Shown piece after piece: positions 24,000-63,719 of a stretch of DNA of 64,000 bases (within the stretch, counting starts at the first letter, position 1; every line of letters starts with the position of its first letter). This DNA comes from Eunapius fragilis (Eukaryota > Porifera > Demospongiae > Spongillida > Spongillidae). The position numbers were made by a program, and so were the translations under genes. The stretch spans positions 8,270,239 through 8,334,238 of the forward strand of contig OY811974.1 of assembly GCA_963681505.1 (NCBI GenBank), in the 5' to 3' direction. Below the pieces are notes generated by a model. That model made no database searches. It saw only the letters and a program-made list of their open reading frames with translations, and was not told where the DNA came from.

Positions 24000-26900
24000 T
24001 GTTGCGCGCGGTCGATCGATTTGCGCTATCCATCGATTGCTCTGCGCGAACAATAGATCTATCGTTTGCGCACCAATCTATCGATCGCGCAACCACCGAT
24101 GGATCGCGCAACAAACATTTTGCGCAATTTACTGATAATGAAATGCACTCCATCGATCGCGCGCAACGATACTTTCGGCTATAACTTGCATGCATGACTC
24201 TGATATTTCATGATAGCATACTGGCAAAATACTGACATGCAGAATCCTTATAACAGGGTTTTGGAGCACAAGTCACACATCCATTTCTTTAACTGAGTCG
24301 CACTGATTCCAACACAGTTTGAATGGAAGCGTTCACTGCAAGCACAGCAACGGATATCCAGTTTGCCATCATCTGTGGACCTACACTTGCAATATACTCT
24401 TCTCTTAATTTGGTAGATAATCCGTGGGTGGCGATTTACAACAGTAGATGGAAAAGGAACTATACCAAACTTATCAACACAGTCTTTAAGATGATTGCGC
24501 AATTGCTTGTAATGCAGTTGAGTTGGATCTTCTCCATGAATCAGAGATGTGGCAAAAGCTACAGCTAGGTCGCCACAAGAGTAGCTGTCTTCTTGTTCTT
24601 GGACATTCATGACATTAATCGTTATTTGGGATTCAGAGCATTGTATATATTTGGATACAATCGAAAGGCAGTCTGAGTCTGGTTTCAGTTGCATAGAGTC
24701 ATAAATGCAGACTGTATTCATTTCTTCTCCAATATTTGATATGAGCAACCAATGGTTTTTATTTACAAGAAGGAACTGTGCAAATTCAAAGTTTGGGGCA
24801 TCAAATGACATATTCTGTTGCAGAACAGGATTTTGAAGACCATCTATGGCAGGAAAAGATTCTTTCAAGAGCTTATTAGCGGCATCCATGTGTGTGTCAT
24901 TCAGCCACTCAGTTGTGTCCAATATTGCTCTGTTAGATGATGAAAGCAGAGGTGACTTGAGTGATAAATTTGTGTCGAATTGGTTGGAACAAGTTGTAGA
25001 CAGATGACATTGAGTGGAACATTCTATGCCATTTTTCTTACAAATACACCTCATAGATTTGCATCCACTTGTGCATTTACAGCTGGACTTTGTGAATTTT
25101 GTCAGTGGATGGAATTTCAGAGCCGCTTCACGAAGTGATAAATGTACTTCAGCATTACCAGCATCAATTTGACCATCATAAGACTGGAGATCCCCTCCAT
25201 GGAATTTTGGCTTGAGGGTTCCATAAGCAGTTGTAAGGCAATATGTCTTCACTTTGTCCCCATATACATGTGCAACAACACAAGGAAGCCGTGGTACATC
25301 AGTTTTGGATCTATCTAGCTTGGGAATGCTAACAGTTACCTTATCACCAATATGAAAAGTTTGAACCTTCATTCCTTTCTTTTTATTGTAATATGTGGAC
25401 ATTCGTGCTGCAGAATGATACGAATTATCAAGGGCTTTCTTTCTAATTTTGGTATGCACTGTTGTATCGTGGTCGTACAAAGTATTCGTAACCTTTTCAT
25501 CTAGTACACTACCACTATCTGATTCTGACTCCTGCTCTGAATTGGTGGAATGATGCTGGGATTGTTCATTTGAGATCTTTTCATCTCCTGCTACTTCTGA
25601 TAATTCTTGTATTGCTGCACTAGTGCTAGGGTGAGACACTGTATCGACAGGTGCAACTGATTTGGGTTCATCAGTTTCAGAAGTAGAGGTCGATGCAGTT
25701 GGTTCAAAATGTTTTGCAGGTGAATGCACAAGTGCAATGCTGTCTGTGGAGAGTTGTGCTTCATCCTCTTGTTTTTTTTCACCATCAGTGCATATATCCT
25801 CCTCATCAACGCAATGCTTTACTGCTCCTGGAAAGAAACCAGTTGGAGAATGCCTTCCAAAAACAACATGGTATGGTGAATCTTTAATGCCTTCATGCTT
25901 TTCACTGTTCATTGAAAACATGATACGCGGTAACCAGGAAACCCAAGGGTATTTGAAACCTGTGTGTCCTTCATCTTGCTTCATGACTGCTATTTTCATT
26001 TCTACTGTGCGATTTCCACGTTCTATAAGACCTTGAGACTGAGAATGACGTGGACGACCATTGACAAATGTTACATCTCCACCCCATCTCTTAAACATAG
26101 CATGAATGAGATTGTTCACAAATTCGCGACCATTGTCTGAGTGGAATATCTTTGGAGGTCCTAAATATGCCAACACACGCTCCTCTAGCATATAGGATAC
26201 CTCTTCAGCTGTTTTCTTTCTCAGTGGAAAAAGTATGTGAAACTTTGAGAAATGATCCATGAAATGGCCAATGTAATTAAATTCGCCATCAGGATTGTGT
26301 CTCATGTCAATCAAATCTACCTGGATCCTGTTTAGAAAGTCTGTCTCAATGATTGGTTGCAAAGGAGGTCTGGTAGTTTGTGCTTGCTTGAGCTGGCAAA
26401 CTGGACAGTGAGAGCAGAATTCCTGTACAAACCCTCTTGTCACTCCAAAGTACTGGCGTTGCATCTGAAATCAAGACATACATGCCAGTATGTCTATGTC
26501 AGTAAGATAATTCAGCTTATACATCTACTTACGTAGTCCAATACTTTTTTATAGCCACTGTGCTTCAATTCGTTGGCATGGATTGCCTGAACTACATCAA
26601 CCAACTGGTCTGCATGTAATACACGAAGAAATTTCGAACTTTCCTGTAAGAGAAAAATAGGTAGCGTTTACATACAAGCGGATATACTCATTGTGGACTA
26701 CACCAAACCTTGACGCTTTCGTCATTTGGAATTACAAGGACTTGCGAGAGACCAATCCCAGGAAGATCGACGACCTGAAACTTTCTGGTTTTCACCCAGT
26801 GTTTGAAGTGATGATCGACCTTGTCTGCTGGATGCAAGAGATGATTGACAATGGCGTCAAACTTTGCTTTAGTTAAAATGCAGCTCTTTTTTGAAGCTGC

Positions 26901-27237
26901 TTTACTATTGGCAACACTAGTCATCCGAGCTTTAAACAGCGGATCCATGTCAAGCCACGCCGGATACGCGTGTATCTGACAGCACACTGAAAGGCAAAAC
27001 AGTCAAGACACCAAGCTTTTGCACCTATTCGCACACGTGCGCTATCAATCGACTGCGCAAGCGCATTGCTGTTCACGTGTATTCTATTGATCGCGCAAGC
27101 TGCTTGCTGCACAATCGATCGATTGTTGCGCGATCCATCGGTGGTTGCGCGATCGATAGATTGGTGCGCAAACGATAGATCTATTGTTCGCGCAGAGCAA
27201 TCGATGGATAGCGCAAATCGATCGACCGCGCGCGACA
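24000..27237 (-). mobile_element. Ginger-like DNA transposon with long TIRs
   Basis: The two ends carry inverted repeats of roughly 115 bp: TGTTGCGCGCGGTCGATCGA from 24000, and the reverse complement of CGATCGACCGCGCGCGACA ending at 27237. TIRs are packed with GCGCAA and ATCGATCG motifs. TGT...ACA termini and an integrase-type transposase fit Ginger elements. Immediate flanks do not form a target duplication (ATAA on the left, TATC on the right). The right flank TATC does match, as its reverse complement GATA, the flank of the 3' end copy at 63715. Confidence 0.85.
24248..26948 (-). CDS. Ginger-like transposase: integrase + CXC + Ulp1 protease + PHD
   Basis: Three exons, 26948-26709, 26643-26533 and 26464-24248, join at phase 0 to give 855 residues with no stop or frameshift. 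An N-terminal basic segment is followed by an HHCC zinc motif (HANELKHSGY, then CSHCPVC). The DDE integrase core has Asp in VDLIDM (about 167), Asp in HSDNGREF (about 227) and Glu in GLIERGNR (about 265). After an acidic Ser-rich linker come an SH3-like C-terminal segment, a CXC-like block (about 576-612, CKCTSGCKSMRCICKK), a Ulp1/C48 protease (about 618-795; His-Trp near 688, Asp near 706, Cys near 747 in SYSCG) and a terminal PHD finger (about 808-855). The integrase part should cut and join element ends; roles for the protease and PHD (SUMO processing, chromatin targeting) are inferences. Being intact, it could be active. Confidence 0.85.
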
Positions 27238-27316
27238 TATCCATAACTATATATATGAGGATGCATTCAGCTTCCTCGATAGGTCGATGTAAGGGGTATA
27301 GGGTCCAGAGCCTGCG
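27238..27316 (+). promoter_or_regulatory. Putative core promoter of the spongin-like gene
   Basis: A TATA-like ACTATATATATGAGG at 27245-27259 lies about 60-70 bp before the start codon and begins right at the transposon end. The Ginger-like insertion therefore sits immediately upstream of this gene's core promoter. Confidence 0.4.
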
Positions 27317-27986
27317 ATGAAGTTAGCTCTTTTTTCAGCCTTACTTTGTACCGCCGTGTCTGTGTCATCAGGTAAAGCTGCATGGCCGGGCATGCTCTGT
27401 CTGTTTTGAGCAGTCAGTATATTCATTCATTTTCTAATTCTTGTCAGGTGCCGTGTACACACGATGGGGACAGGTTACCTGTCCAGCAAGTGCGCAGTTG
27501 CTCTATAGCGGCACAATGGCAGGTAAAAGCCAGTCTGAAAGTGGAGACGGCGCCAATTTCCTATGCCTCCCGAAAAAACCGACGTATGTCACTGCCCCGG
27601 GGGGGACGGGTGACGGCCTCATTTCGGCGGCCCACTACGCCTGGGCCAGCAGCAATACTCCATTTCAGGCCGTCAACAACAAAGCCATACCGTGTGCCGT
27701 GTGCCTTACTACTCACGCCGACCTATTGATGATGCCGGGCGTGATACAATGTCCAACTAACGCTTGGACACTCGAATACGTGGGCTTCCTGGCTTCTGAG
27801 CATTCCAGCCTTAAGAACCCTACTTCATACGAGTGCATCGATCGAAGTACCATGACCCTGGGAGCTCTCAGTACTGGCGCCGCCCTTTACCACGTCCGCG
27901 CAAATTGCGGACCCGTAGATTTACCGTGCGGAGTAGGACTCTATGATATCAAAAAGGATTTGACCTGTGCAGTGTGCACTATCTAA
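27317..27986 (+). CDS. Secreted spongin / short-chain collagen C-terminal-domain protein
   Basis: Two exons (27317-27371 and 27448-27986) join at phase 1 to give 197 residues. The first is a classical signal peptide (MKLALFSALLCTAVSVSS). The rest matches the non-collagenous domain that follows the Gly-X-Y helix in sponge short-chain collagens (spongin type): AVYTRWGQVTCP, QLLYSGTMAG, ANFLCLP, PCAVC, CPTNAWTLEYVGFL, YECID and the terminal LTCAVC. About ten cysteines suggest disulfide cross-linking. No Gly-X-Y repeat is present, so this is the globular domain alone. I expect an extracellular matrix or secreted role. Intron phase and start are well defined, with a TATA-like box upstream. Similar domains also occur in some other invertebrates. 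Confidence 0.8.
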
Positions 27987-28725
27987 CTAAAGCGGTTGTA
28001 CAATGACATTGGTTATATACTTATGTGTGCAGATAGTTTTGTTTTCTTCAAGTTTTTAGTTTTAGTTACTCGTGTGCATGACGCTGAATTTGCAAACGTG
28101 TAATGTTGTTCTGTCCTCAAGTATAGTAGTGGGCTCATGAACAGCGAGGTCTAGCACATGGATATGAATTTATGATATCAGTCTAAGGATATACTCATTA
28201 CAACAACAAACACATGTGGCGCAATGCAAGCAAGACATTTTCGTTACAAAATGTTTTGTGGCAGGTAGATTTCTAAAAATAGAATATGACCACATTAAAA
28301 GGTATCGGAACCTAGCTGCGGAAGCAGATGTCGTATAATGAAAAACGTGTCTCGCAAGCCTGACGTATTTAGTTGTTGGGACTGGAGACATGGGGAAATA
28401 GAAGTACTTTAACGTAGAAGTACTTCAACGCTTCCCTCTCACATCCCCAGTCCTCCGCACGCGTACGTCGTAAGTATACGTCTTCTATGTCTGGAGGTAG
28501 TCTCGGTCCCAGACCCAGTTAGCAGCAGCGGATGGATTACATCATCGCTACGCTAAACAAGGGTCTGGTAGAAAAAGTGACCACGCCGCAAGAAATCTTG
28601 CAGCTCCAATCAGGTTGCAGCATTATACATTGTACGATAATTAAGAATTTTATGAGCGATTTCGCGTGAAAGTTACATTCATACTGCCACTGTATCTCAT
28701 TAACCAATCATATATTAGGCTAATG

Positions 28726-28970
28726 GCGATCACACCAGAAGCTAGTAAGCTTGGCTACAGTGATTTCACATCGGATCAGCGGCTTGTCGTAGAACGGTTT
28801 TTGTCCAGATCGGACGTATTGTTCAGTAGCCTTCCAATAGGTAGCGGCATGTCTCTGTGCTACTGGATGCTTCCCTTTGCCAGCGACTAATATCCTGAGA
28901 GGCAGACATAGTTCCATCGTGCTCGTAGTAAGTCCCCTGATCGCTCTAATGAAGGATCAGGTATACAGTG
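28726..28970 (+). pseudogene. RecQ-like DNA helicase fragment, decayed
   Basis: The frame from 28727 reads LGYSDFTSDQ (Q motif), SLPIGSGMSLCY (Walker A) and then hits a stop near 28888. After a frame change, SIVLVVSPLIALMKDQV (motif Ia) follows to about 28962. In RecQ helicases the Walker A lysine is essential; here it is Met, and the frame is broken. I judge it a non-functional scrap. RecQ-like copies are common near repeats in sponge and cnidarian genomes as far as I recall. Confidence 0.6.
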
Positions 28971-29194
28971 TTGGTAGCCATGGAAAGAGGTGTCTCAGCC
29001 GTACGGGCAAAATGTGGCATGTGGAGTTGCTCGCAACTTGACGTCGATCACCCACCGCCGTGCGGGTAAACCACAGCACACTTAAAGCCCCTTTAAGGCC
29101 AATCATAGCTGATGGGCTATTTTCTCGTATCCAGGTAGGTTTGATCACTATTCATGCTTACTAACACGTACAAAATATTTATACATATCTGTAG

Positions 29195-29303
29195 ATCGAT
29201 CTGATTGGTATGCCACAAAATGGACGCAACTGGATATTACACATCGTGGATCATTTGTCAAAGTTTAATTTTGGATTTCCTCTTGTAAAAAAGAAATCTC
29301 CAG
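29195..29303 (+). pseudogene. Integrase-core fragment
   Basis: After an AG acceptor the frame reads IDLIGMPQNGRNW, HIVDHLSKFNFGFPL and KKKS. This lines up with VDLIDMRHNPDGEFNYIGH...FSKFHILFPL in the intact element at 24248-26948. It contains the first catalytic Asp and is followed by unrelated AT-rich sequence, so this is an orphan exon or relic. Confidence 0.65.
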
Positions 29304-31086
29304 GCAGTGGTCCTAGATCTAGACCGTTAGCGGTCCTAGATCTAGTACCACCATATTATAGCTTCGAAATTAATTGAAATAAACATTGTATTTTCTAATT
29401 TAATATTTTATTATGGTCTCCAATATTATTTGGATAAATAATAGTTAAGAAGAAATCATTATAACAATTCGTTTATTATTGCATCAGCATGAGTTTATTG
29501 CAAAAATTGGTGAAATAAGAGATGAAAGTTAATCGGTTTCTGTTTTTGCTTGTAACTTCACACCCATATGTGCTCAATTTCAGGGGAACACATTTTAATA
29601 TTAGTAAAACACTGCCCTAAATGGATAAGTTTAAAAACCATATTGAATGGTTTTCAAAACTGTTCTTTTTTGTAGCTTATTCCAAACCGGAGAAACGGGC
29701 CTTTAAGTACCGATAAAACAATGTATGGATGGATATTGAGACGCAACTATTATAAAAACTGTGATCCACATAATGCCGATATTCAAACGGTCATAGATGT
29801 TTTGTCTTTTAATATTTTGATACCAATTTTCATATGAAGAATGGCATGTTCACATAGAATGCGATTTGAGAACAAATATTATTTTCTTATATACTGGAAT
29901 TGCAGCATGTGTTTATAAATGGATAAAACTAAATTTTGACGAACGTCTGATTAAATGTATCCAAGGCCCTGTATTAAAATTTCCTATTAATCCTAGCACT
30001 CTCAACTGAAGTATTATTAGTTTATTCAGTTAAGCTGGACTTCAAACTATTTTGCAGTAGCACATACTTTGTACATAATACAATAATCTTAATCATAAAA
30101 ATTTCCAGCCAAATAAAATAAGACGTTGAATCGATTTCCTACACATCGAACAACAATCCCTGGCCTTTATATATTCATGACTTCAAAAGTGCTTAAAGCC
30201 ACTCTGCTCACCTGTGCCCTGTTTAAATCTCATCTTGGTTAGTCCATATATAACATTTGCCACTGCATAATCACTGCCAAATGTGCAACTTTGTATTCCA
30301 TTCTACATCTGAACTAAAGCATGCTGAAATATGGCATCATTTATCGTATTGGCAATGTGTGCAATAATCATCCGTTTTTTTTATTGATTAATTTTACTTT
30401 TTCTGCAGGGGCACATACATGCACTAGTTGTCGCATCCCATTCTAATGTTATGCTATCTTGTGAAAGTAAGAATTTCTGCAGTCTAGATGTCACTTAACA
30501 CATCCACCTCAGAATTAAATGTAGCCACACAGCTCATCTAAGTCATTGGTTATTTTAACAGCCATCTGAAAAAGAATATGGCATCTGATTGGATCATGTG
30601 AAGCATTGAGGCTTACCAAACGATCATTGCATGCATGGTTAACAGTACTTGGTATCTCCCGCAATACTATAACTTGGTCCGAAGCGAAAATAAATCATTG
30701 CGGACTTTTAAAAAATTCTGAGAGTTACAACGATTATAGATTAATACAACGATGCAATGTATTCATACATAGGACCCGAGTATGTACCCTCAGAAAGGGC
30801 GCATTTATGTGGCTCGAAGGATTACATAATTCTTCAAAGAAAAATACTGTATTGTATTGTAAAACTATAGCACCTAACAGAGTATTAATTGATTCCAAAC
30901 CATGAAAACCAAATTCTGTTGTAATGTGATAAGCAATGAGATAGCTGTGACATATTCAACGGTGAGCTGAAAACGAGCCATTGCGCATAGCCAGATCGTC
31001 GTGAAAGTTTCAAGGTATATAGAAATGCCTGCCTGCTAGTACCGTCATTGGAAGAGTAGTCATGTATTCCAGCACTTCTATCAGCG
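29304..31086. other. AT-rich spacer with no supported gene
   Basis: I see no domain-like ORF. One weak possibility is a tiny two-exon secreted peptide: a TATATATTC box, ATG at 30177, 20 hydrophobic codons, donor GTTAGT at 30238, acceptor at 30408, then AHTCTSCRIPF and a stop (33 residues). It is unsupported by homology. Confidence 0.4.
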
Positions 31087-31204
31087 GTGCGATATTAGCG
31101 AAGAGGCGTATAGAAGTTGTTTTTAGAAGTTGATTTCGAGGAGTGGATAATTATAGTATATTTATCCACTCCTCGAAAGCACTCCTCTTCGCTAATATCT
31201 GCGG
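31087..31204. repeat. 118-bp palindromic MITE-like element
   Basis: Outer arms GCGATATTAGCGAAGAGG and CCTCTTCGCTAATATCTGC pair. Inner arms TTTCGAGGAGTGGATAA and TATCCACTCCTCGAAA also pair around an AT-rich centre, so nearly the whole unit is a hairpin. Confidence 0.8.
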
Positions 31205-31342
31205 TGATGGTGAGGGTGTGGTCAGGCTATATAAACTATAAATGAAGTGCAAAATTTCTCCTCCACATCACAGTTATGTGCATGTAATAATAACCTTGAT
31301 TTTAAAAACATGTTACATATGCATTTATATACAAATGTATGA

Positions 31343-31344
<2 letters not shown>

Positions 31345-31384
<40 letters not shown>

Positions 31385-31388
31385 TGTG
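31345..31388. repeat. (GT)n microsatellite
   Basis: About 44 bp of GT dinucleotides in non-coding sequence. Confidence 0.95.
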
Positions 31389-31976
31389 CCTGGATCAATT
31401 CACTTACTGCTCGTCCTCATCAATATTGAAGACGTCCTCTAGTCCATTCTTTTCATACCAGGCAACTCCTTCTGGGCTCTAGCCACACCTTGCTGGTAGT
31501 ACCATCAGCCTCTTCAAGTAAGCACACACTGCATCAGTCTGCATGCAGAATACACCATGCCATTCATTCCACCTACAAAGCTAACAATAAGCTGTCCATC
31601 TACAGTTAAAACATCACCGCTGGAAGCTGTTGGGGATAACTGTTGTCTGCTGCTACTTTGGGTGTGGCTCCCTCTGGATGGCTACTGTTGGAGTAACTGG
31701 TATTGATAGTTAGAACGTGATAAAGATGTAGCTTCCAAGGACAACAATGGTTCAAGGGTGCAAGATGGATACCCAGCTCCTGAGCCATTCTGGCAGCTTT
31801 TGTGAGCAAAAGAGCATGCAATAGCACACAATTATGCCCACGCACACCGAAGTGAGAAAAAGCATCGTTTATCATAATTATTTTTCATTTCTCTGCTAGT
31901 TATGCAAGGAGTTTGCTTTATTTACCTGCTGAACCAAGAGAAAATCAAGAAGTGGTCATTTGGGAGACAGTGACAT

Positions 31977-32060
31977 CTCCTCTGACTCCTTTGTATTCTG
32001 ACTTCTTTGTCCTCTGACTCCTTTGTCCTCTGACTCCTTTGTCCTCTGACTCCTTTGTCT
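31977..32060. repeat. 16-bp tandem repeat, about five copies
   Basis: The unit TCCTCTGACTCCTTTG is repeated with few changes. On the minus strand it encodes a short basic GQRSQRTKESED-type stretch. It could be a distal tail exon of the receptor gene at 32806-35101, but I cannot show a valid join. Confidence 0.8.
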
Positions 32061-32805
32061 CTATCAGAGGCAAGTGTCACTTCTGGTACAGCAGCCATAG
32101 TGCATGAGAAAGAAAGCACCTTGCCCCACAAATGCCACACTCTGGTTGGTCTTGCATTCCCCTAGCTGTTGAGTGCTAAGGTAACTGGGATTTTGAACCA
32201 GACAAACCTTCTCGTTTTTAGCCTCACGTCATTAATAAATTGGCCTTCCAGGCCCTAGCTAAGTCTAAAACAATAATAATGTTGAACACAACTCTTCTTA
32301 GATAATGATGTAACACTAGATCTCTATTTGGGTATGCCCCATGATGCCATGTTTTTTTTTTCTTGCATTGTTTAGTAGACTATAGCAGGACCTACGATTT
32401 TTTCGATCTCATTTTTTCTCATTTTTTCGGTCAAATCTGTTATAGCATTTCTTTAGCAATTACCCTCCATACTCAGCAGCTTGCATGGTCATGAAGATAT
32501 GCTCCTCTGCTGTTCTGTTGCTGTGCTTTACGCCGAATGCCATTCACGTATAGCTGGGCGTGGCCCAACTTATTATAATAAGGGTTGTATTCACAATCAC
32601 TGTTCATCACATATGTGTTCCATACATTGGAAAAGTTATACCATTAGGTATATAACCAGTGTCAACGTATAGCATGATGTCCGAAGAAATTGCAAAATTG
32701 ATGGCATATCTAATGAATTAGCATACATTCTTTTGGCCACAAACAAACGGTAGCACAACTAATAGTTGATGTTGCCATAGTTAAAGTTAAAAGGTAGAGC
32801 TTTAC

Positions 32806-35101
32806 CTTTTTCTTTCATTGATGATGAAGGCGTTTATGGTGTCATCTTCTACATTTCTTTGGACTCTAGTAATAAGCTTCAAACACAGTACATTGAACGT
32901 ATATCAGATGACAATTGCCTACAACAATATTAAAAATTAAAAAAAAACGCTTGGTTAATGAATCACTCCATATGCTGGACATTCCTCCATGTTCTGTATG
33001 TTCAATGGAGGAGCTTTTATTCCTTCATATGCACTGTTCTGTTCAAGTTCTATTTGCTTGTTCTTAGTTCTTCCTATTTTTGTAATGTATAATGCTTACA
33101 ACATAACACCAATGATATCCCCTTACCTTTAAGCTTAAATCTTATGTATACACCTATACAAACCACACCTCCAACTGCTAATATCATCAGTACTACCACA
33201 CCACATATTGTTCCATACACTGAGTAAATAAAACACATATTATTGTACACAAAAAATGGATATAAAAATTCATGTCATCTAATCATATTCTATTAACTAA
33301 CATTGATGCCTTACCTAATGCATTAGTGGATAGCTCAATATTATGGCCACCAGTAGTAATCATGGGACCAACAGTGCTCATGATATGTATGGTGGTGGGT
33401 GTGGACACCATTGTTTGCAGTTCTGAGTAAGGTATACAAGGTTGGTGAAGATATCAAATCAAATACATGACAAAATGTAATAACTGTGCCCCTCTGCTCA
33501 ATACAGTATTTAAAATTGCACAACATTCTGCACCATGCCATACAACAAACCAGTGCAGCCACAGATGATTTTTTAAACCAACCAATCAGTGACTTCTTTG
33601 GAGGTATGAAGATAAATGTGGTTGTATTTCCTCTCCCAGCTCCATTAACAGCAATGAAAATGAACTGAATTGTATCATTATAGTCCAAGATGGTTGCATT
33701 CTGCTCTCCATATCTTCCAAAATGTATAACAAATGATGGATCTGAAAGACCTAATGATGAATTACAAGGCATGGCAGACCTGCATCCTGGTGGATTACTG
33801 ATGGTCTTTGTAATGTTGGTGACATTGTTACCAAGTTCATAATGAGATACAGTGGGAGGGGTCGAAAGTTCAAGAGATGGTGGTGCAACCCAGGAGACCA
33901 CTAAGGTAGCTTTGGTAGAATTAATCAAGAACTGCTGTGGAGGAGCTAGTATGCCTATACAAACATAAGTGACACTTAGAAATGACACTAAGGCTACATC
34001 AGTTTATGTTTATATTAGTAATAATTTTATTGCAATATCACTGTGTGTATACGTTCCAAAGACTGGCAGGTTTTGTCTCAGCATGCTTTACCTCTTGCTA
34101 TCAGATTTCACAGCATTAGTCATAATCATGACTAAGGCAAACTAGAAGTGTGATATTATGAATAAGTCTTAGAACGGACAATCGGTCTGGGTCTTACGTA
34201 TCCCAGATATACATGATCACTCTTTCAGTCATAGAATTTTACTGCCTTGATACACAGTACTCAACATACCCTCCCCACTCCACCTTTCTCAGGTACCTTT
34301 TACACACAAGCCACATATACTTCATCATTTATGGTCATGGAGGCTAAAGAGAGATTACTCGGATTCATGTTAGTGACTGCTTCGTCAATGTACTACTCAA
34401 GGTACAGACTATGGCAATGACTGGTCATTTGGTATTCACTGTAAATCAAAGTGCTGTTGTCCAGTAATGACATTCCTTAACTATACAGGTCAACAGTTAA
34501 AAGGTTTGATTTAATGTTATATATATATATAGATATAGTGGACATTATCATGAAGTTTAAATAGAATTCTAACAGAATCTAACCTTGCAGAGTGAGTCTC
34601 ACTGGATTACTTGAGTGAACCTGATATGATGAATCCACAACTGTACACCTCACTGTAATGTTTCTGTTGGCTTTGGTGGTGGGAACATTGAGCTGAGTGT
34701 ACACAGTAAGTCCATCTGGTGACATAATGTAGTGTATATCCTGTATTCTTTTACTGAGTGCATATGGTGTGCCAGTTGTGTACCCATCCACTGTCCAGAA
34801 CACTACTGTCCCATTTCCATAACAACTGAAGCTTAATGTCAATGAATTGTTCTCAAATGTTGTAAAGTCATAAGATGGTATAATGACAATGCTGCCTGCA
34901 CCTAATGAATATGATAGACCAAACAATGCAACGATAACAATACTACATGTATAATGCACTAGCTCTATATCAAGGTACAAAAGCCTGACTAGTTAATGCA
35001 TGCAATCTCCATTTTTGGAACTGTCCATTTAAATACTTACCAATGGTGCTCAGTAATAGGTCTAGAAGTAGAATGATTTGGTAGTTCTTGGAATTATTCA
35101 T
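32806..35101 (-). CDS. Ig + FN3 membrane receptor, paralogue of 18210-21907
   Basis: Exons on the minus strand: 35101-35041 (signal peptide, NYQIILLLDLLLSTIG), 34901-34584 (Ig), 33954-33583 (FN3), 33422-33315 (Thr-rich stalk), 33219-33127 (transmembrane, GVVVLMILAVGGVVCIG) and 32863-32806 (start of the cytoplasmic tail). All joins through the transmembrane exon are phase 1, and the tail exon leaves phase 2, exactly as in the plus-strand paralogue. The Ig domain keeps the Cys pair (SFSCYG, VRCTVVD) and VFWTVDG; FN3 keeps LVVSWVAPPSLE and PPGCR. Stalk and tail are much more diverged than the Ig and FN3 domains. The final exon and stop lie below 32800 and are not resolved. Confidence 0.7.
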
Positions 35102-54075: not shown

Positions 54076-54109
54076 CTACACATGAAATCCTTCTAGAAAG
54101 GTACCAATG

Positions 54110-54142
54110 CTACAAGCACACACACACACGCACACACACACA

Positions 54143-54182
<40 letters not shown>
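54110..54182. repeat. (CA)n microsatellite
   Basis: About 70 bp of CA with a few CG steps, directly after the right arm of FB-C. Confidence 0.95.
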
Positions 54183-54790
54183 GGTGGTCTTGACAAAGCT
54201 TAGCAAGCTGTGTCCGGACCTCCACCAGTGGACACCTTGCTACATGTAGCTCCATCACATCCCCTTCATGTTGGGACACCCACACCACTACAAGGCCACC
54301 AATGGATGCATGCTACTTGCTCCACCACATCAAGGCTTCCATCTCCACCAGTAGGGATTCCCCACCCTCTTCACAGCAGGTGCCCCTTGTCCTCCACATC
54401 AAGGTACCCCCTCTTCGATAGATGTCACACTTCTACGTAGGGATCTCCTTCCCCCCTTTTTACCATTCCATCCAGGAGACACCCCCCCTCCTTCTCACAG
54501 TATACCCTCCTAAACTGTGTAACACCACTAATGGTCTTATTTCAAAATACTATAAATTAAATATAGTTACCGGTATGTACTATCTCATGACGAAAAAAAA
54601 CTGTCTGATGGAACAAGCAATAAAAAACATTCTTTGTGAGAAAGTTGGTATATAGGATTGAAAGGCAATAGTGGTGTAAAAAGGAAATAATATGGGAAAT
54701 AGTCCTATATTTAGCACATTTGTAGGACATTATGTTGTTCAACTGTGTGCGTATTACATTACCCCTTATTAGTAGATCCTTGTTTCCTTC
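54183..54790. other. Spacer with CAC-rich partial repeats
   Basis: Phrases such as CTCCACCACATCAAGGCTTCC recur loosely between 54210 and 54480. No gene is supported. Confidence 0.4.
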
Positions 54791-54794
54791 CTTT

Positions 54795-54956
54795 TTGCCA
54801 TCCAATCCTATATGCCATCAACTTTCTCATAGAGAATGTCTTTATTACTTGTAAGCAAGGCTTCCATCTCTAGGTGAGCAGATCTAGAAGTAGCTTGTCA
54901 ACACATCACAAAAATAAATTTCAAATCTCCAAGAAAGGTTCCAATGCTACACACAC

Positions 54957-54996
<40 letters not shown>

Positions 54997-55452
54997 ACAC
55001 ACACACACACAAACACACACGGAAATTCCAATGCTACTTAGGATTAGTGGTTCTGGTGAGGATGGCTGTCAGGTTTGCTACACATATGACCAAATGCAAA
55101 AGCCTGTGGAAGTCACCTGGAAGCGGCACTGCCCCAGATCCAAAAACATACATAAAAATGACACCAAGTGCTCTGACCCTCAGGTGGGTATGTGACCAAA
55201 TGTCTCATTGATTGCAGAGCCTTAAACACAAAGGCATTAGCCTATCTATTTGCCACCATCTCATGTAAATCAATATTCCATGGGTGACTTCCATGGGTGG
55301 CTTTGCATCTGGTCATAGCAAGCTGACAGTCGTACCTACCAGAACCACTAATTCTAAGTAGCACTGGTTTGTGTGTGTGAGTGTGTGTGTGTGTGTGCGT
55401 GCGTGTGCGTGTGTGTGTATGTATAACTATACATGGGCCCTTCTAGGTGTGT

Positions 55453-55497
<45 letters not shown>

Positions 55498-55500
55498 GCA
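54795..55500. repeat. Partial copies of FB-C inner arm and centre
   Basis: 54800-55075 repeats 52365-52600 (CATCCAATCCTATATGCC, GTGAGCAGATCTAGAAGTAG, CA tract, GGTTCTGGTGAGGATG). 55320-55360 repeats the central segment in the other orientation before (GT)n tracts at 55368-55420 and 55445-55495. Confidence 0.75.
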
Positions 55501-55959
55501 ATATACATGGGCACCTTTTAGGAATCTGTGCTATTTATTTATCCTACGTGATATTACTTGCAGGTCCACCACTCTGTAAGAGGGACTTTAGTAGACCTAC
55601 TTATACCTGGTATAAAAGCCTGGCAGGAATATTATTCCTGCTGTATCCCAAGAGATAAAGATCAGGGCCCTGGGAATTTTATATAAACCTCTCAATGGTA
55701 CTCACTCAGAGCTTCAGCGTATATGGTGATTGGCATGGGATAGTTGTGAGTGTTGTGTGTATGAGTGTGTGAGTGTGTAAATGTATATATGTATGTAAAG
55801 GAATATGGGACATGAGGCATGGTACGTCATGATGTGGCAGGTACTGTGAGACAGGAACAAATAGTCCAGTACATACAACACATTAATCCAGTACATGCAA
55901 CCAATGGGGGGAGGGGGGAGATGCCCTTCCTCTGAAAAAAGTGTTGGGGCATTTGCCCC

Positions 55960-56400
55960 ATGCTCATATACCACTATGTATACAACACACAATCCAGTTA
56001 CACATCGGTCTGAATATAGATAGTTGGTTGTATAGTAGGCCAGTGTAACCAAAAGACATAGAAAAAAAGTTCAAATGGACAAATCTTATGAGTGAATCCA
56101 TGTAGCACACAACATAACAATTTACAGGGTGTACAGCAAGGGGAAAAGAATAGTGTCTTATGGTGGAAAGAGTGTGTATAGGCGTGACATGAGACGTGTA
56201 ATGTGTTGGTTCATGGGTGTGTGTGAGTGTGCCAGCCATGCAGATGAATTGAAAAACGGTGGGCGTTTAAAATATATATGTGCCAGCAGAACGCATATCT
56301 CGACAATAAGGAACGGTTACATGTGTTCCAGCCTAGCTGCGCTGCATGTGTCTTTAACTCGACCACGCCTCTCCCATAGCCTAGCTAATACACCGTGCAC
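55960..56400. repeat. Partial copy of FB-C outer arm
   Basis: Matches 51900-52260 in the same orientation (AAAAAGTTCAAATGGACAAA, ACAACATAACAATTTACAGG, GGTAGAAAGAGTGTGTAT-like) and the reverse complement of 53000-53330. It joins directly to a family A arm at 56440, as the FB-C arms do near 52300 and 52900. Confidence 0.75.
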
Positions 56401-56439
56401 TACATATCATGGCTCTGACGTACTGTTATAGGCTGTGCG

Positions 56440-57110
56440 CCTATAAATGGCCACGCAATGAGTGGCACCCAAAGAGTATACGACAGGGGCGCGATTTCTA
56501 CATAATGTTTTGCGCGCGTATCGGTACTGGTGGTACGTACCGTGTTTTGTATGGTGATGGTAGCTGAATCCCACGCATTTCTATCGCTTAGCGAATCTTG
56601 TTTGCTATAGAAGAGAACCACTGATCATGAGTGACGTTTGTAAGAAGCTGGTACTTCAGTTGTACATAGTGGCATGGGCACGGGAGGTTGTTATATTTCA
56701 TGTGCTCGGAGTAGCGGGAACCACGTTAATGGCGCGAAATGAACGAGAAATGTGCAATTACTTTGCACAGCTGTATCTCCGTAACGGATCATGTAAAAAT
56801 TAACGAACAGGGCAAATCGATAGGCACAGGACCCCTCTGCGTATAAACCGAGTTTGAAGTTAATTGAGATGTCCTGTCGAAAGATATGGCTAGTTTGAAC
56901 CCAAAGGGGTATCGGACGTTGCAACACTGGCACGAAGCTAATGCAAGACCCCAAAACCTATTTTACCTTAGAAATGGTGTAGTATGAAGTGTTGAAAATA
57001 GGAAGTCAATAGCGTTTACCGTTCCGAAGTTATAGCGATTCAAACGTGAGTAATTTTTATAACTTTTATAAAATATAGCGAAGGCTCATTTTCGCGGATA
57101 CTAGCTGATC
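56440..57110 (-). repeat. Family A terminal-repeat copy
   Basis: Same orientation and content as 283-955 (GAGTGGCACCCAAAGAGTAT, TCGGTACTGGTGGTACGTAC, ATCTCCGTAACGGATCA), ending near ATAGCGAAGGCTCATTTTCGC. No coding potential. Confidence 0.75.
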
Positions 57111-57129
57111 CATATGTATATATTATAAA

Positions 57130-57965
57130 TATATATATCTGTGCGTGTGCAGAAGTCAGAAAGGAAGGTGCGTTTCAGATTAAGCTAGCCCCACCGTGCA
57201 CTTTCATGCTCTGCAGCGTTGTGCACGCATAAATGAAGCAGTTTGACCGAGCCAACACGCTCGATTTCTACGTGCATGCGCTGCAGAGTACGTACCGTGT
57301 TGCGCAGGCTGATGGCAGTTGAATCCACGTATTACGAATCTTTAGCTTCTGATCACTATGTTGAAGAAGCCAAGAAGGAGAACAGAACACAGTGGTGTAT
57401 CCAGAGAGGGTGCTCCTGGTGCTTGAGTACCCCCCCCCCCCCCCCCCCCCCCCTAGGCCTTAGGTGGTAAAATTATTAAAAATTATACTTTGTATTATTA
57501 ATAATTTGTCGCCGCGTATATTCGATCATGTCGATTTTAGAGCACTTCCAAAAATCGAAAGTAGTAGCTGTACGCTTGCGCTGCCTATTGATACCCGTAC
57601 GCATGAACTCTACTATATCCCGGACCTCCTGATACGCGATCACACCCCCCACTTTTCGTATCAGGCCAGAAGCCGGCAGCACCACCCCCCCCCCCCCCCA
57701 GCTTTTCGTATCGGGCCAAAAACCGACAGCACCCCCCCCCCCCCCCCCCCCCCACTTCTCGTATCGGGCCTGACCTTAAGCACCCCCCTTGCTGAAATCC
57801 TGGATACGACCGGGAAAGATGCAATTAGTAGTACTAATAGTATTACGAAGTGTTGAAAATAGGAAGTCAATAGCATTTACGGTTCGCGGGAGATGTAGCG
57901 ATTTCAAAGTGAATCATTGTTATAACTTTATATATATAAACGTGATACGCCAGTTTCGCGTGAAC
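57130..57965 (-). repeat. Broken family A arm with poly-C insertions
   Basis: 57145-57390 matches 4565-4800 and 57838-57965 matches the arm tip (GAAGTGTTGAAAATAGGAAG to CGTGAACTGTCCCG). Between them lies an unrelated segment with several long poly-C runs and the phrase CGTATCRGGCC repeated three times (57656, 57707, 57759). Confidence 0.65.
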
Positions 57966-57983
57966 TGTCCCGTATATATATAT

Positions 57984-60486
57984 GGGTCAGTTCACGCGAA
58001 AATGAGCCTTCGCTATATGTTATAAAAATGACTCGCGTTTGAATCGCTATAACTTCGGAACGGTAAACGCTATTGACTTCCTATTTTCAAAACTTCCTAC
58101 TACATCATTTCCCTCTGGCAAAATCGATTACGGGCTCTTGCATTAGCTTCGTGCCAGTGTTACAACGTCCGATACCCCTTGGGGTTCAAATCCGCCATAT
58201 CTTTCTGCAGGAAAATTCTATTCACTCCTAGTTTGGTTTTTACGTAGAGGGATCTTGTACCTATTGATTTGTTCTGTTCGTTAATTTTTTCTTTATCCGT
58301 TACGGGGATACAACTGTGCAAAGTAATTGCATATTTCCCGGTCGTTTCGCGCCATTTACCTATTACGACTGGCATCGAGGACATGAATATGCAATTACTT
58401 CCTGTTAAATAACTATGTCTCCGCCCATCTATACACTATACAACAAGTACGCTGCGTTTTCGCTTCTTGCAAACGTCTGGCTCTGTTCCCCTTCTTGGCT
58501 TCTTCAACATAGCGAGCAGAAGCTAAAGATTCGTAATACGTGGGTTCAGCTGCCATCAGCCTGCGCAACACGGTACGTACTCTGTAGCGCATGCACGTAG
58601 AAATCGAGCGTGTTGGCTCGGTCAAACTGCTTCATTTTTGCGTGTACAACGCTGCAGAGCATGAAAGTGCGCGGTGTCTAGGGCTAGCTTAATCTGAAAC
58701 GCACCCTTCCTTTTTGACTTCTGCACACGCACAGATATATATCGAACATGCACCCCCTTGTAGCTACATGTATTTATCAACGTGTAGTACTCTCATTGGC
58801 CTACTAAAACCTCTTTCTTGTTTAATTTATCTTCATTGGTGAACCAATTATATTTGGTTCTACAAAATAATATCCATACAAAATAAGATCCACAAGTCAC
58901 ACACATGCACACACTCACATTCATACACAACCTCAGATCAGAGGAATTGGTGTCATTTAATTCTGTCAGAATGCTCCCTCATGCTTAGTTTCCAATTGGT
59001 GGTGTGCTTGGCATAGTTGATTTTTTGCCTAAAAGGGGTCAGGCGACCGTGGGTTTGCTGTCCCCCTACCCTGAGTGTGACTGGAACCAAGGTTACCATT
59101 TGGTCAGCCCACACCTTGACGCTGGTCAAGGTAAGGTGGTTAGACCAGGGTAGAAGCCAAAAGGGTGCTACATGCCATTGATGTATAAACAATAACACCT
59201 GTAGCAATACATTTATACGTACAGCCATGGTAAGCAACGCAGCTGGCATTTAGCTGGAGTGATTGCAGCCCACCTCTACCATCCTTTATACATACATGTG
59301 TGACCTGCAACCATACCAGGTGTCAATATTTTGGGGACAGTGTGTTAGATAGGGTATGACTGAAAGTGAGGGAATGAGTTAAATGGAGGCAAGGCTTTTC
59401 CAGACATTTAGGCTCAGGGTAGAATGAAAGTGGGGCTTTCCCAGAAGATATTCCAGGCTAGAATTTTAGCTGGGAATTTAGTGCACATGCACACACACAC
59501 ACACACATGCACACACATGCACACACACATTCACATACACAGAACTGGCTCTGCTTTTATCTAATTTCCCTGTAGTCTTTTGTTGCTATGAGCACACTTA
59601 CTAGATGTGAGCCTGCACTACAAGTATGCACACTTATGCACACAGACATGCATGCACAAACACACATACTCACACAAACAAACAAACACACACATACACA
59701 AGTGCAAACCACCCACTCTCCATTCTGCTTGGTACACTCACACTTGTACCTCCATCATTAGAGCCTGTTGGTCCTTAATTCACCTCATATGCAATTTTGA
59801 TTTTTTTTTCTTCTTCTGCTCCTGTTTGGCTTCCACTGATGTACCCATGGCCTCTACTAGATGCTCATGTCCCATCACCTACACTAGATGCTAATGTCCC
59901 GTGATTCTAAGTACTAACTTGTCAGGTTGAGTAGCGCCACATACACCATCACCCATAGCCGTTGAGGTTTTCAATATACAAGACATGTACATGTATCCAG
60001 GCTAAGAAGAATCTCCGATGCTATGGAGAGATAGTTTCTGAGCTGGCTTTCTGTGATTCCATTTGACCCATCCATGTCTGTGTGGACTCATCTCATGCCA
60101 TTGGTTGACTACCCCCACCATCATGATAATATGCCTGCTAACCACAATGGGCTCAGTGATTTCCATCACTTAAGCTCACCTCAGTGTACTGCTAGAAGCT
60201 TTGGTAAGGTTCATGGCTCTAGACCTGTCCACCACCTATCCAAACCCCTAACACTATACACAGCATGGCTGCCCAGGCCACAAAGACTTGTTTTATGACA
60301 CCAATGATTATGATCTGGGGTGAGTGTTTCCACTTGTTGCTGAGATCTATGGACAGAGGCATCAGCTGTAGACTGGCCTCTGCTTCACCTCCTTACACAT
60401 AGCTAATGGAGATGTCATTTAGAGATTGATTGTGTGTGTGCTTGTGTGTGTGCGTGTGTGTGTGCCTATGTGTGTGCTTGTATGTG

Positions 60487-60521
<35 letters not shown>

Positions 60522-60600
60522 CCTGTGTGATACGTGTACTCTGGAAAAGGGCTTACATGTATGGGTTGGAAGCCTTGCATGTCTGGCAGTGAATATCATT
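57984..60600. mobile_element. Inverted second copy of FB-A (right arm plus interior)
   Basis: Starts GGGTCAGTTCACGCGAAAAT and follows the reverse complement of 5280 back to about 2030, including GCATGCTCTGCAGCGTTG-type, GGTCAGGCGACCGTGGG and GATCTGGGGTGAGTGTTTCC landmarks. The GT-rich part is shorter than in the first copy, and the distal arm (1496-2020) is missing. Beyond 60600 the sequence switches to one related to 51230-51300. Confidence 0.8.
60428..60520. repeat. (GT)n microsatellite
   Basis: Interrupted GT tracts corresponding to the (CA)n at 2104-2200 of the other copy. Confidence 0.9.
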
Positions 60601-60711
60601 GCTACCCTATCACTACTGATAGTGGTTAGACTGGGCCTCTGTAAAGTTTGTATTGGATTGAGTGTAATAGTATTCACATCCAACTGCTCCCATGTCTCCA
60701 TGAGTTCTAGC

Positions 60712-60712
60712 A

Positions 60713-60752
<40 letters not shown>
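60712..60752. repeat. (CA)n microsatellite
   Basis: About 40 bp of pure CA in repeat-derived sequence. Confidence 0.95.
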
Positions 60753-60755
<3 letters not shown>

Positions 60756-60891
60756 ATGGAGTAAATGAAATTTAGATTTCTGAGACAGCTTATAGCTGAT
60801 GCCTCTGTACCTTAGCAACAAGTGGAAAATAGGTGTCATTGAACAGGTTCATGTTTGGCATGCCAGCTCTGCTACAGGGTCATGGCATGAA

Positions 60892-61005
60892 TGTGTGTGT
60901 ATGTGTGTGTGTGTGTGTGTATGTGTGTATGTGTGTGTATGTGTGTGTACATGTGTGTGTGTATGTGTGTGTACATGTACGTGCGTGTGTATGTGTGTGT
61001 TGTGT
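60892..61005. repeat. (GT)n microsatellite with ATGT interruptions
   Basis: About 110 bp of GT dinucleotides with regular AT and ACAT interruptions. Confidence 0.9.
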
Positions 61006-61204
61006 ATTAAGTGCACATGACAACACCTGACAATTTAGTAACCAGATGTTTAAAAATTGGTTCTAGACCTTTTCATCATCTCTCGACTTAACTCCCTAAC
61101 AGCGTAAATACCCAGGCCACAAAGGTCCCAACATGTACTTTTAAGTACATGCACACACACACACACTCACATACCTACTCTCACACACCAGAAATAATAC
61201 ATAT

Positions 61205-61415
61205 GTACACACAACACACTTGCTTGGTGTGTGTATGTGTGTGCATGATAAAAGTGCACAAGATGATTTATAAAAAGCAAAGGCTCCAATAGAATACAAA
61301 TGTAAAACAGGATGACTGAGGCAGTTTTACGTTTGTATGTGGGTGGACAATTAGGAAATAAAATTACAACAGCAAAACCCGGACGTTGATGTGTGAATGA
61401 CTGACTACCCAAGGC
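61205..61415. repeat. Diverged second copy of 3540-3730
   Basis: AAAAGCAAAGGCTCCAATAG, TTTGTATGTGGGTGGACAATTAGGAAATAAA and GTTGATGTGTGAATGACTGAC follow the same order and orientation as 3565-3720. The FB-A interior therefore has a further copy here in direct orientation, ending abruptly at the transposase fragment. Confidence 0.7.
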
Positions 61416-61436
61416 ATGGGAGCCGCCCTCAAGGTA

Positions 61437-62560
61437 ATGGAACAGAATTTTAATGATACCCTTAATGAATTGCTTGGCATCAAGAAAAGGCTTACATCAC
61501 CATATCACCCACAAGTAAGTTTATAGTTACTGAGATACATGTGCATGGGCTGCTTAAATATAACCAAGCACCATTTCAAGATTGTATTAATGAGGTCCTA
61601 CATTTCTGACATAGATATCAATTTTCTCTTATTGTAGGCTAATGGACTCGACGAACGTTTTAACCAGACCTTTGCAGAATATGCTGGTCAAATTTGTATC
61701 CTCTAAAAATGAAAAATGGAGCTTATGTCTGGACACTTGTGCATTCGCTTATAATACATCTCGTCATAATTCCACAAAGTTTACACCTTTCTACCTAATG
61801 TTTGGCCGACAAGCTTATCTTCCTGTTGATGCTGACTTTCAGATTCAGTCTCCTGAGGAACTATGTACTGGTTATTTTGAATTAAAGGATTCAGACATTT
61901 CATCGAAAGAATATCAGTTAGTCTTGGAAGAAGCAAAACGAAACATCTTAGAAGCTCAAATGAAACAAAAAAAAAATTATGATAAGAAACATTCAAAACC
62001 TGGAAAGATTCAAGTCAGTTCACTAGTCCTAAAATTGGATTTTAAACGGAAAAAATCAAAGGGAGGTAAATTAAAGGATAGATATGTGGGTCCATACAAA
62101 ATCCTCGGTTGCCTTCCTCATGGAGTCTACAACTTGCAGGATAATAAAGGCATTACAATTCGTGCAACAGGCAGCCATCTAAAAATCTTCCACCCTGACC
62201 CCTCATCCTCCATTTCAAACAGTTCCAAAACAAGCCCTGTTGATGATTTTCCTTCTGTAAAGGATAGTGATCAATCACGTCGCAAGGATTCAAAGTGGTC
62301 TCCTGCCATCTCTGAGGATGACCCACCATCAGAAGGTGAATCAAGTCACTCTGTCGATGAGAATTCCAAGAGCTCTCCTCCAAAATCTGGTGCCATCTCT
62401 GAGGATGACCCACCATAAGAAGGTGAATCAAGTCACTCTGTCGATGAGGATCCCAAGAGCTCTCCTCAAAATCTCTGAGGATGACCCACCATCAGAAGGT
62501 GAATCAAGTCACTCTGTTGATGAGGATCCCAAGAGCTCTCCTCCAAAATCTGGTGCCATC
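61437..62560 (+). pseudogene. Integrase half of a Ginger-like transposase
   Basis: An upstream exon (to 61512, donor GTAAGT) encodes NDTLNELLGIKKRLTSPYHPQ. After an intron, 61639 onward reads ANGLDERFNQT with the catalytic Glu, then shifts frame near 61671 into LQNMLVKFV, continuing through TKFTPFYLMFGRQAYLPVDAD and the SH3-like C-terminal segment (GGKLKDRYVGPYKI). A Ser/Asp-rich 29-residue repeat (AISEDDPPSEGESSHSVDE type) follows about three times, with one stop at 62416. It ends precisely at the 8-bp site GTGCCATC before a hAT terminus. Its natural continuation, in frame, is the CXC/Ulp1/PHD block at 23405-22440. The upstream zinc and first Asp exons are absent. Confidence 0.75.
62290..62560 (+). 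repeat. About 87-bp coding tandem repeat in the transposase linker
   Basis: Three units containing CATCTCTGAGGATGACCCAC, GGTGAATCAAGTCACTCTGT and AAGAGCTCTCCTCCAAAATC; the middle one is shortened. Each encodes an acidic Ser-rich linker segment. Confidence 0.85.
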
Positions 62561-63146
62561 TAGGGTGTGTAACCGATTTTCAAGTTTTGTAGGTTAATCG
62601 GTTATTCGCGATCACCTATTCGGTAGACTATGTACTTAGTAAAATAGCAGGTTACCGATTGCAGAATTTCCTTTAGTCGAAACAACCGATTCCGTTTTTC
62701 TTAGTCGCGATTAGTCGATATTCGTTTCCTTCATATGCAAAAATCGATAGCAAATCGATTACTCCTTTTTATATGCCCTACGCTTTTCCCGCCTGTACAA
62801 GGGGATACTAACGGGTTAAAAAAGAAACGGGGACCCGGCTGAAGGTAACCATCAGCCTCAATATACGCGCAATGGGGCCCTGGGCACGGCTATTTAAATA
62901 TATAGCTCGCACTTTCTCTGCAGTATTATACATGTGCATTAACCAAACGCGCTATGTACTCTTTTGCACAGGTGACAGGTGTCCAAATACTCGGTACACT
63001 GGCTTGTTTCCAGACGTTCGGCCCATGACGTTCTGAATATCGTACATGTCTCGATTGTCATATGCGTGGAGCGGTTTTTCACCATGAGGTGTGCTGGCAC
63101 TGCTCAGTACTTATTGAATTGTATATTGATGGCGAATAATGGATTA
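62561..63146 (+). mobile_element. Left half of a hAT-like element
   Basis: Starts with TAGGGTGTGTAACC right after GTGCCATC. Subterminal AATCGGTTA, ACCGATTGC, AACCGATTCC and AATCGATTA motifs are characteristic of hAT ends. No transposase is seen. At 63146 it is interrupted by Ginger-like sequence. Confidence 0.7.
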
Positions 63147-63715
63147 TTAGCTGTAGCTTTTGCCACATCTCTGATTCATGGAGAAGATCCAACTCAACTG
63201 CATTACAAGCAATTGCGCAATCATCTTAAAGACTGTGTTGATAAGTTTGGTATAGTTCCTTTTCCATCTACTGTTGTAAATCGCCACCCACGGATTATCT
63301 ACCAAATTAAGAGAAGAGTATATTGCAAGTGTAGGTCCACAGATGATGGCAAACTGGATATCCGTTGCTGTGCTTGCAGTGAACGCTTCCATTCAAACTG
63401 TGTTGGAATCAGTGCGACTCAGTTAAAGAAATGGATGTGTGACTTGTGCTCCAAAACCCTGTTATAAGGATTCTGCATGTCAGTATTTTGCCAGTATGCT
63501 ATCATGAAATATCAGAGTCATGCATGCAAGTTATAGCCGAAAGTATCGTTGCGCGCGATCGATGGAGTGCATTTCATTATCAGTAAATTGCGCAAAATGT
63601 TTGTTGCGCGATCCATCGGTGGTTGCGCGATCGATAGATTGGTGCGCAAACGATAGATCTATTGTTCGCGCAGAGCAATCGATGGATAGCGCAAATCGAT
63701 CGACCGCGCGCAACA
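63147..63715 (+). mobile_element. 3' end of a Ginger-like element, duplicate of 24000-24568
   Basis: Comparison by eye shows no difference from the reverse complement of 24000-24568 over about 569 bp, covering the end of Ulp1, the whole PHD finger, the stop codon (63467) and the TIR ending in GCGCGCAACA at 63715. It is truncated on the 5' side at TAGCTGTAGC. The next bases are GATA. The coding frame is open but incomplete. Confidence 0.85.
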
Positions 63716-63719
63716 GATA

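What the first reader, a model, noticed from the sequence alone, without database searches (positions are those of the whole stretch)
24000..63719. A 39-kb inversion mediated by two inverted Ginger-like 3' ends
The intact element's outer flank at 27238-27241 is TATC (GATA when read into the element), and the 3' copy ending at 63715 is followed by GATA. Combining these gives GATA-TGT...ACA-GATA, the 4-bp target duplication expected for Ginger-type elements. Neither copy has a duplication with its own neighbours. The shared 569 bp are in inverted orientation and appear identical, which is what homologous recombination between them needs. Undoing the inversion also reunites a split hAT insertion and a split transposase gene. 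The segment carries the spongin-like gene, one Ig/FN3 gene, the KIF23-like exons and the phosphatase gene.
Basis: partly seen in the sequence, partly recalled or inferred. Interest (0 to 1): 0.9.

Follow-up and report, generated by a model that had tools for sequence, protein, structure and literature searches.

The report
Jumping gene flipped 39-kb sponge segment
In a freshwater sponge genome, two copies of one mobile DNA element lie at the ends of a 39,000-base stretch that was flipped, and undoing the flip restores several interrupted sequences, which makes this a clear example of a known way in which mobile DNA reshuffles chromosomes.

Summary
Confirmed. The arms 24000-24567 and 63148-63715 are 568 bp, inverted and identical. 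Independent tests agree. The joined left site is a continuous repeat at 31 other loci; 18 of the 20 copies aligned carry a single intact ATAA. The halves of a hAT-like insertion meet again with an 8-bp duplication. Three other loci, 97% identical, run across the rejoined host transposase. At the right site a neighbouring paralogue aligns across the rejoined junction. Best mechanism: ectopic recombination between two oppositely oriented insertions, one cut down to its 3' end before or after. Hybrid-end transposition and one-step break repair are not excluded. Arm identity does not discriminate: two independent copies are identical over 1978 bp. The element resembles Ginger1 but lacks its CCGG target preference (0 of 18). 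New member of a known kind.

The parts
22440..23243 (-). ORF with Ulp1 peptidase and PHD finger: C-terminal half of a second, interrupted Ginger-like transposase gene
   Evidence: Pfam PHD 7.2e-07, Peptidase_C48 1.6e-04; continuous with the 61642-62418 side in other loci
23406..23413 (+). GATGGCAC, left copy of the 8-bp target duplication of the hAT-like insertion
   Evidence: partner at 62553-62560
23414..23999 (+). left half of a non-autonomous hAT-like repeat (about 1170 bp when rejoined)
23996..23999 (+). ATAA, one half of the exchanged target duplication of the relic
24000..27237 (-). intact Ginger-like element, 3238 bp, 115-bp TIRs
24000..24567 (-). inverted-repeat arm 1 (3' end of the intact element)
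24248..26948 (-). transposase, 855 aa in three inferred exons (26948-26709, 26643-26533, 26464-24248): H2C2, integrase core, Ulp1, weak PHD
   Evidence: splice sites chosen by eye and spliced; Pfam
27238..27241 (-). TATC, read as GATA into the element: one half of the exchanged target duplication of the intact element
27242..63147 (.). inverted segment outside the two copies
27317..27986 (+). first exons of a gene called 'spongin-like' in the finding (name not tested; secretion inferred by eye), start codon 79 bp from the element
   Evidence: start codon read; ORF; paralogue at C4:8336168-8336590
61642..62418 (+). integrase C-terminal ORF: other half of the interrupted second Ginger-like gene
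   Evidence: Pfam SH3_Tf2-1 below its cut-off
62553..62560 (-). GTGCCATC = GATGGCAC reversed, right copy of the hAT-like target duplication
62561..63147 (-). right half of the hAT-like repeat, ending in TTAT (ATAA reversed, 63144-63147)
63148..63715 (+). inverted-repeat arm 2: 3'-end relic of the Ginger-like element, 568 bp, identical to arm 1
63716..63719 (+). GATA, other half of the exchanged target duplication of the intact element
63720..63860 (+). former upstream region of the gene at 27317, left behind by the inversion
   Evidence: aligns with the upstream region of the paralogue: score 126.5 against 500 shuffles with mean 56.4, sd 5.3, max 74

Best explanation
Two insertions of one young Ginger-like cut-and-paste transposon lay about 39 kb apart in opposite orientation. 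One was at a GATA site just upstream of a gene ('spongin-like'). The other was at an ATAA site inside a hAT-like repeat that itself sat in another Ginger-like gene. Recombination between them inverted the segment between and exchanged their target duplications. One copy was cut down to its 3' 568 bp, ending exactly at its target duplication; the likely cause is excision followed by one-sided, aborted gap repair, before or after the inversion. Shown: both 4-bp duplications, the restored nested insertions, and colinear paralogues at both rejoined junctions. Inferred: that recombination rather than transposition did it, the cause of the truncation, and the order of the two steps.
For: Identical inverted arms. 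Reciprocal GATA and ATAA duplications against 5 of 600 wrong-partner matches. Left empty site: 31 of 45 rows cover at least 993 of the 1000 joined bases and 7 more cross the joint; of the 20 aligned, 18 keep a single TTATAA there and 2 have a deletion over it. hAT 8-bp duplication GATGGCAC. Host transposase crossed at the joint by three loci at 97% and one at 76%. Right empty site: one paralogue at C4:8336 kb aligned across the joint. The family makes 4-bp duplications, 18 of 25 other two-ended copies exact. No N in the window; HiFi assembly.
Against: No reads, second haplotype or related species could be examined. The arms carry no difference, so the chimerism that marks recombination cannot be seen. 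The relic has one terminus only, and no second relic of that kind was found: the one candidate tested, L062, failed the empty-site test; the other single ends were not examined. Local duplicates do not speak clearly for the undone order: between the left outside and the inverted segment 6 rows lie in the same orientation now and 9 inverted (one of these is the element's own TIR pair), between the segment and the right outside 3 same and 2 inverted. The 'spongin-like' pair becomes head to head when the inversion is undone.
Confidence: 0.68

Rival explanations
1. Hybrid-end transposition: the 3' end of the element on one sister chromatid and the 5' end on the other inserted together at the ATAA site. 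That makes the inversion, both copies and the exchanged duplications in one step; the second copy lost its 5' part later.
For: Gives the same duplications; predicts identical copies, as found (0 of 568). PMC2775673 states that the outcome is strikingly similar except that copies are identical instead of chimeric (passage).
Against: Identity is not informative here: copies on C20 and C1 with different target duplications are identical over 1978 bp. It still needs a separate truncation.
Confidence: 0.12
2. One-step break repair: transposase excised a copy at the ATAA site; one broken end copied the 3' 568 bp of the element at the GATA site, and the repair was resolved as a half crossover plus end joining. 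Inversion and relic arose together.
For: Explains why the relic stops exactly at the ATAA duplication and why the arms are identical.
Against: No precedent was looked up; needs some end homology for strand invasion; only one example.
Confidence: 0.1
3. Misassembly: the individual has the uninverted order and the assembler swapped arms at the identical repeat.
For: Would give exactly the same sequence pattern. [quoted passage not shown] the suggestion is mine). Libraries were of the ULI type.
Against: Mean HiFi read length is about 9.8 kb (184.53 Gb from 18.74 million reads; my division), far longer than 568 bp; 0 N in the window.
Confidence: 0.08
4. Chance: unrelated flanks that happen to match.
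For: A 4-bp match alone is weak (0.5% for random window 4-mers).
Against: Two 4-bp matches, an 8-bp match and three separate colinear rejoined sequences.
Confidence: 0.01

Closest known systems
Drosophila buzzatii inversion 2z3 made by the transposon Galileo (PMC2775673)
   Same: Two oppositely oriented copies at the breakpoints with exchanged target duplications; single target copies at empty sites (passages seen)
   Different: There non-inverted chromosomes were sequenced and the copies were visibly chimeric. Here the proof of the old order comes from paralogous repeats, the copies are identical, one is a one-ended relic, and the element is Ginger-like in a sponge
Ginger1 DNA transposons, nearest by architecture Ginger1-9_HM of Hydra (3,758 bp, 120-bp TIR, 2 introns, Ulp1 and PHD; PMC2836005, passages seen)
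   Same: TGTNR ends, 115-bp TIR, 4-bp duplications, H2C2 and integrase core, Ulp1 and a weak PHD, two inferred introns
   Different: Duplications are not CCGG/CCGT (0 of 18); no clear GPY/F motif seen by eye
Inversions by alternative transposition in maize (PMC8225341)
   Same: Transposase-made inversions (search listing and start of abstract only)
   Different: Two complete cooperating ends are needed (PMC2775673 passages); not shown here
Abortive gap repair of cut-and-paste transposons
   Same: Shortened copies left after incomplete repair of an excision (search listing only; mechanism recalled)
   Different: Here one terminus is lost completely, up to the duplication

Membership tests
Inversion by ectopic recombination between transposon copies (Galileo type) | homologous copies in opposite orientation at both breakpoints | tested here: met
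   568 bp, 100%
Inversion by ectopic recombination between transposon copies (Galileo type) | target duplications exchanged between the copies | tested here: met
   GATA and ATAA
Inversion by ectopic recombination between transposon copies (Galileo type) | single target copy at the sites without insertion | tested here: met
   left site in 18 of 20 aligned paralogues, deleted in 2; right site only by one diverged paralogue
Inversion by ectopic recombination between transposon copies (Galileo type) | copies chimeric | tested here: inconclusive
   no differences between arms; no change private to the arms against 8 other copies
Inversion by ectopic recombination between transposon copies (Galileo type) | non-inverted chromosome known | not testable with these tools
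   alternate haplotype, reads and related sponges not held
Ginger1 | TGTNR termini, 40-270 bp TIR | tested here: met
   TGTTG/TGTCG, 115 bp; definition
Ginger1 | 4-bp target duplication | tested here: met
   of 25 other two-ended copies 18 exact, 4 with 3 of 4 bases, 3 with 2 or fewer
Ginger1 | CCGG or CCGT/ACGG target | tested here: not met
   0 of 18
Ginger1 | Gypsy-type integrase with H2C2, plus C-terminal Ulp1 (PHD in one family) | tested here: met
   rve 4.1e-10, H2C2 8.1e-06, Peptidase_C48 2.7e-05; PHD 0.016, below cut-off; a CXXC1 chain matches the same stretch at 1.5e-04 (that this is its PHD finger is recalled)
Ginger1 | GPY/F motif | tested here: inconclusive
   not evident by eye in the element's protein; VGPYK present in the other element's ORF 61642-62418
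hAT | 8-bp target duplication and short TIR | tested here: met
   GATGGCAC; TAGGGTGTGTAACC ends; the definition is recalled
hAT | hAT transposase | not tested
   non-autonomous repeat; no search made

The most novel reading that the evidence does not exclude
The transposase itself started the inversion: excision of a Ginger-like copy broke the chromosome, repair copied 568 bp from a second copy 39 kb away, and resolution of that repair produced the inversion and the one-ended relic in the same event.
Probability: 0.12. Interest if true: 0.6.

Novelty: new member of a known kind. Interest (0 to 1): 0.42.

Why it matters
It is a closely dissected inversion in a sponge, with both junctions supported from one assembly, and a worked example of using nested repeats as paralogous empty sites when no second genome is at hand. 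My searches of the held library found no report of an inversion made by a Ginger element or of one made by ectopic recombination in sponges (6 papers: 2 papers, judged from titles and starts of abstracts; none). It also moved a gene away from its former upstream region, so an effect on expression can be tested.

Tried and rejected
Chance match of flanks: rejected by reciprocal duplications and by paralogues. Identity of the arms as proof of a single event: rejected, because independent copies are equally identical. Private mutations shared by the arms as a sign of parent and daughter copies: none against 8 other copies. L062 as a second relic with CAAA near both sides: rejected, because 0 of the 40 rows returned (40 of 348 candidates scored) cross the joined flanks by more than a few bases, and the two flanks match different sets of loci. 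L051 without a duplication: it lies in a minisatellite array (read), so uninformative. Orientation of local duplicates as support: mixed, not used. The annotation of the window is not complete: 13 ORFs went to Pfam.

Rows dropped before the count of 18 of 25: the two window copies, L062 (5' end missing) and L065 (its 5' end lay outside the locus; it was counted through its ends L079 and L080). For the nine pairs only 40-60 bases at each end were read, and the ends were paired by position and strand.
Full report
WHERE IT IS. The window is G000:C4:8270239-8334238. The held genome has 218,937,333 bases in 24 contigs. I saw the lengths of 21 contigs; 20 agree to rounding with the chromosome table of the Eunapius fragilis assembly odEunFrag1.1, and C5 differs by 0.01 Mb (11.68 against 11.69) (PMC12616128, section 5 read). 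I take the organism to be that freshwater sponge. The assembly is from PacBio HiFi reads (ULI libraries) with Hi-C, 802 gaps in all; the window holds no N.

THE OBSERVATION. Arms 24000-24567 and 63148-63715 are 568 bp, inverted and identical, with no outward extension. The intact element is 24000-27237, with 115-bp TIRs and one mismatch. As found, the intact copy has flanks GATA and TTAT and the relic TTAT and GATA.

IS 4 BP ENOUGH? In 25 other two-ended copies of the family, own flanks match exactly in 18, in 3 of 4 bases in 4, and in 2 or fewer in 3. Pairing the wrong copies gives 5 matches of 600. Two reciprocal matches are therefore unlikely by chance, but the stronger evidence is independent of the 4-mers.

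LEFT SITE. I joined 23500-23999 to the reverse complement of 62644-63143, keeping one ATAA, and searched the genome. Of 45 rows, 31 cover at least 993 of 1000 bases (81-87% identity), 7 more cross the joint at base 500, two are the window's own halves, and five are fragments (40 of 395 candidates were scored). I aligned the 20 best loci: 18 read straight through the joint with one TTATAA (L017 and L023 differ by one base next to it), and two have a 10-base deletion over it. So the sequences left of 24000 and left of 63148 are two halves of one repeat copy.

The repeat ends at 23414 and 62561, with TAGGGTGTGTAACC ends and GATGGCAC on both outer sides, an 8-bp hAT-type duplication that exists only when the inversion is undone. 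Outside it lie two halves of another Ginger-like gene, 22440-23243 and 61642-62418. A query with both halves joined (joint at base 974 of 1885) is crossed from 1 to 1223 by loci on C1, C23 and C2 at 97%, and from 555 to 1610 by one on C5 at 76%; C1 and C23 also carry the rest, next to it. The host has internal tandem repeats around query 960-1223, so the C2 rows beyond the joint overlap.

RIGHT SITE. Joined flanks (27242-27700 reversed, GATA, 63720-64000) have no comparable repeat copies, but one neighbour matches: a paralogue of the gene at 27317, at C4:8336168-8336590, about 2 kb beyond the window. It aligns colinearly across the joint, including the upstream region that is now at 63720-63860. 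That part alone scores 126.5 against 500 dinucleotide shuffles with mean 56.4, sd 5.3 and max 74. The gene has thus been separated from its former upstream region. This site rests on one diverged paralogue (about 72-75% over the gene part).

CONTROLS. The same empty-site test on two other copies without an exact duplication found no spanning locus: L050 (40 of 109 candidates scored, listing truncated) and L062 (40 of 348 candidates scored). In both cases the two flanks match different sets of loci. The test therefore discriminates. L050 may itself be a second rearrangement.

THE ELEMENT. The protein, spliced from three inferred exons (855 aa), has an integrase zinc finger (8.1e-06), integrase core (4.1e-10), Ulp1 peptidase (2.7e-05) and a weak PHD finger (0.016, below the cut-off). 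The integrase region matches the PFV integrase by sequence (2.2e-09). Architecture is nearest to Ginger1-9_HM as tabulated in PMC2836005 (passages seen). That paper gives Ginger1 a CCGG (75%) or CCGT/ACGG (24%) target; here 0 of 18 exact duplications are of that kind. I therefore call it Ginger-like and do not file it as Ginger1.

MECHANISM. Exchanged duplications fit recombination between two insertions and also hybrid-end transposition. PMC2775673 (passages seen) separates them by chimeric against identical copies. The arms here are identical and carry no change private to them against 8 other copies. This does not decide it, because two copies with different duplications on C20 and C1 are identical over 1978 bp: the family is young. 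I prefer recombination because it needs nothing unusual. The relic ends exactly at its duplication, with at most one base of ambiguity, as expected if a transposase-cut end was joined to a partly copied element.

WHAT REMAINS UNTESTED. Reads, the alternate haplotype (GCA_963681495.1, named) and related sponges were not available. The inversion could be heterozygous. Gene names in the finding are only partly verified. Local duplicates around the segment give no clear vote: left outside against inside 6 rows in the same orientation and 9 inverted, inside against right outside 3 and 2.

LITERATURE. In the held library, 'Ginger' with 'inversion breakpoint' and 'transposon' gave 6 papers, none about this by title and start of abstract; 'Ginger1' with 'ectopic recombination' and 'inversion' gave 2, likewise; 'Eunapius fragilis' with 'inversion' gave none; 'Porifera' with 'inversion', 'transposable element' and 'ectopic recombination' gave none.

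VERDICT. A real and well documented transposon-bounded inversion (unless the assembly is wrong), of the kind described for Galileo in Drosophila. New for a Ginger-like element and for sponges as far as these searches go.

Noticed in passing
L050 (C13:3418598-3421835): Nearly identical full-length copy (12 differences of 3238 bp) with flanks ATGT and CATA. Its left flank matches 12 other loci at 100% over 453 bases and its right flank another repeat, whose closest copy (97%) lies 29 kb upstream on the same chromosome: possibly a second rearrangement by the same family.
   Followed up: partly
L056, L058-L061, L063, L064: Non-autonomous subfamily of about 2.0-2.15 kb that lacks roughly element positions 811-1860; L059 and L060 are identical over 1978 bp on different chromosomes, so it was recently mobile.
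   Followed up: partly
G000 pattern hits with TGTTACGCGCGATCGATGGATTTGCGC: A further related subfamily with its own end sequence, 11 of the 67 pattern hits.
   Followed up: no
window 2027-5293 and 57973-60598; 18454-20700 and 33595-34904; 44470-45733 and C4:8347178-8348874: Local duplicates with long rows that are inverted now and would be in the same orientation once the inversion is undone; other rows, and the 'spongin-like' pair, behave the opposite way.
   Followed up: partly
window 13886-17850: About 4 kb array of an 18-bp unit that leaves long ORFs open on both strands.
   Followed up: no
left flank of L050, query 369-454: Repeat with an internal tandem unit, successive matches about 163 bp apart, in many loci.
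   Followed up: no
window 63902-63924: Run of 23 C close to the right breakpoint.
   Followed up: no
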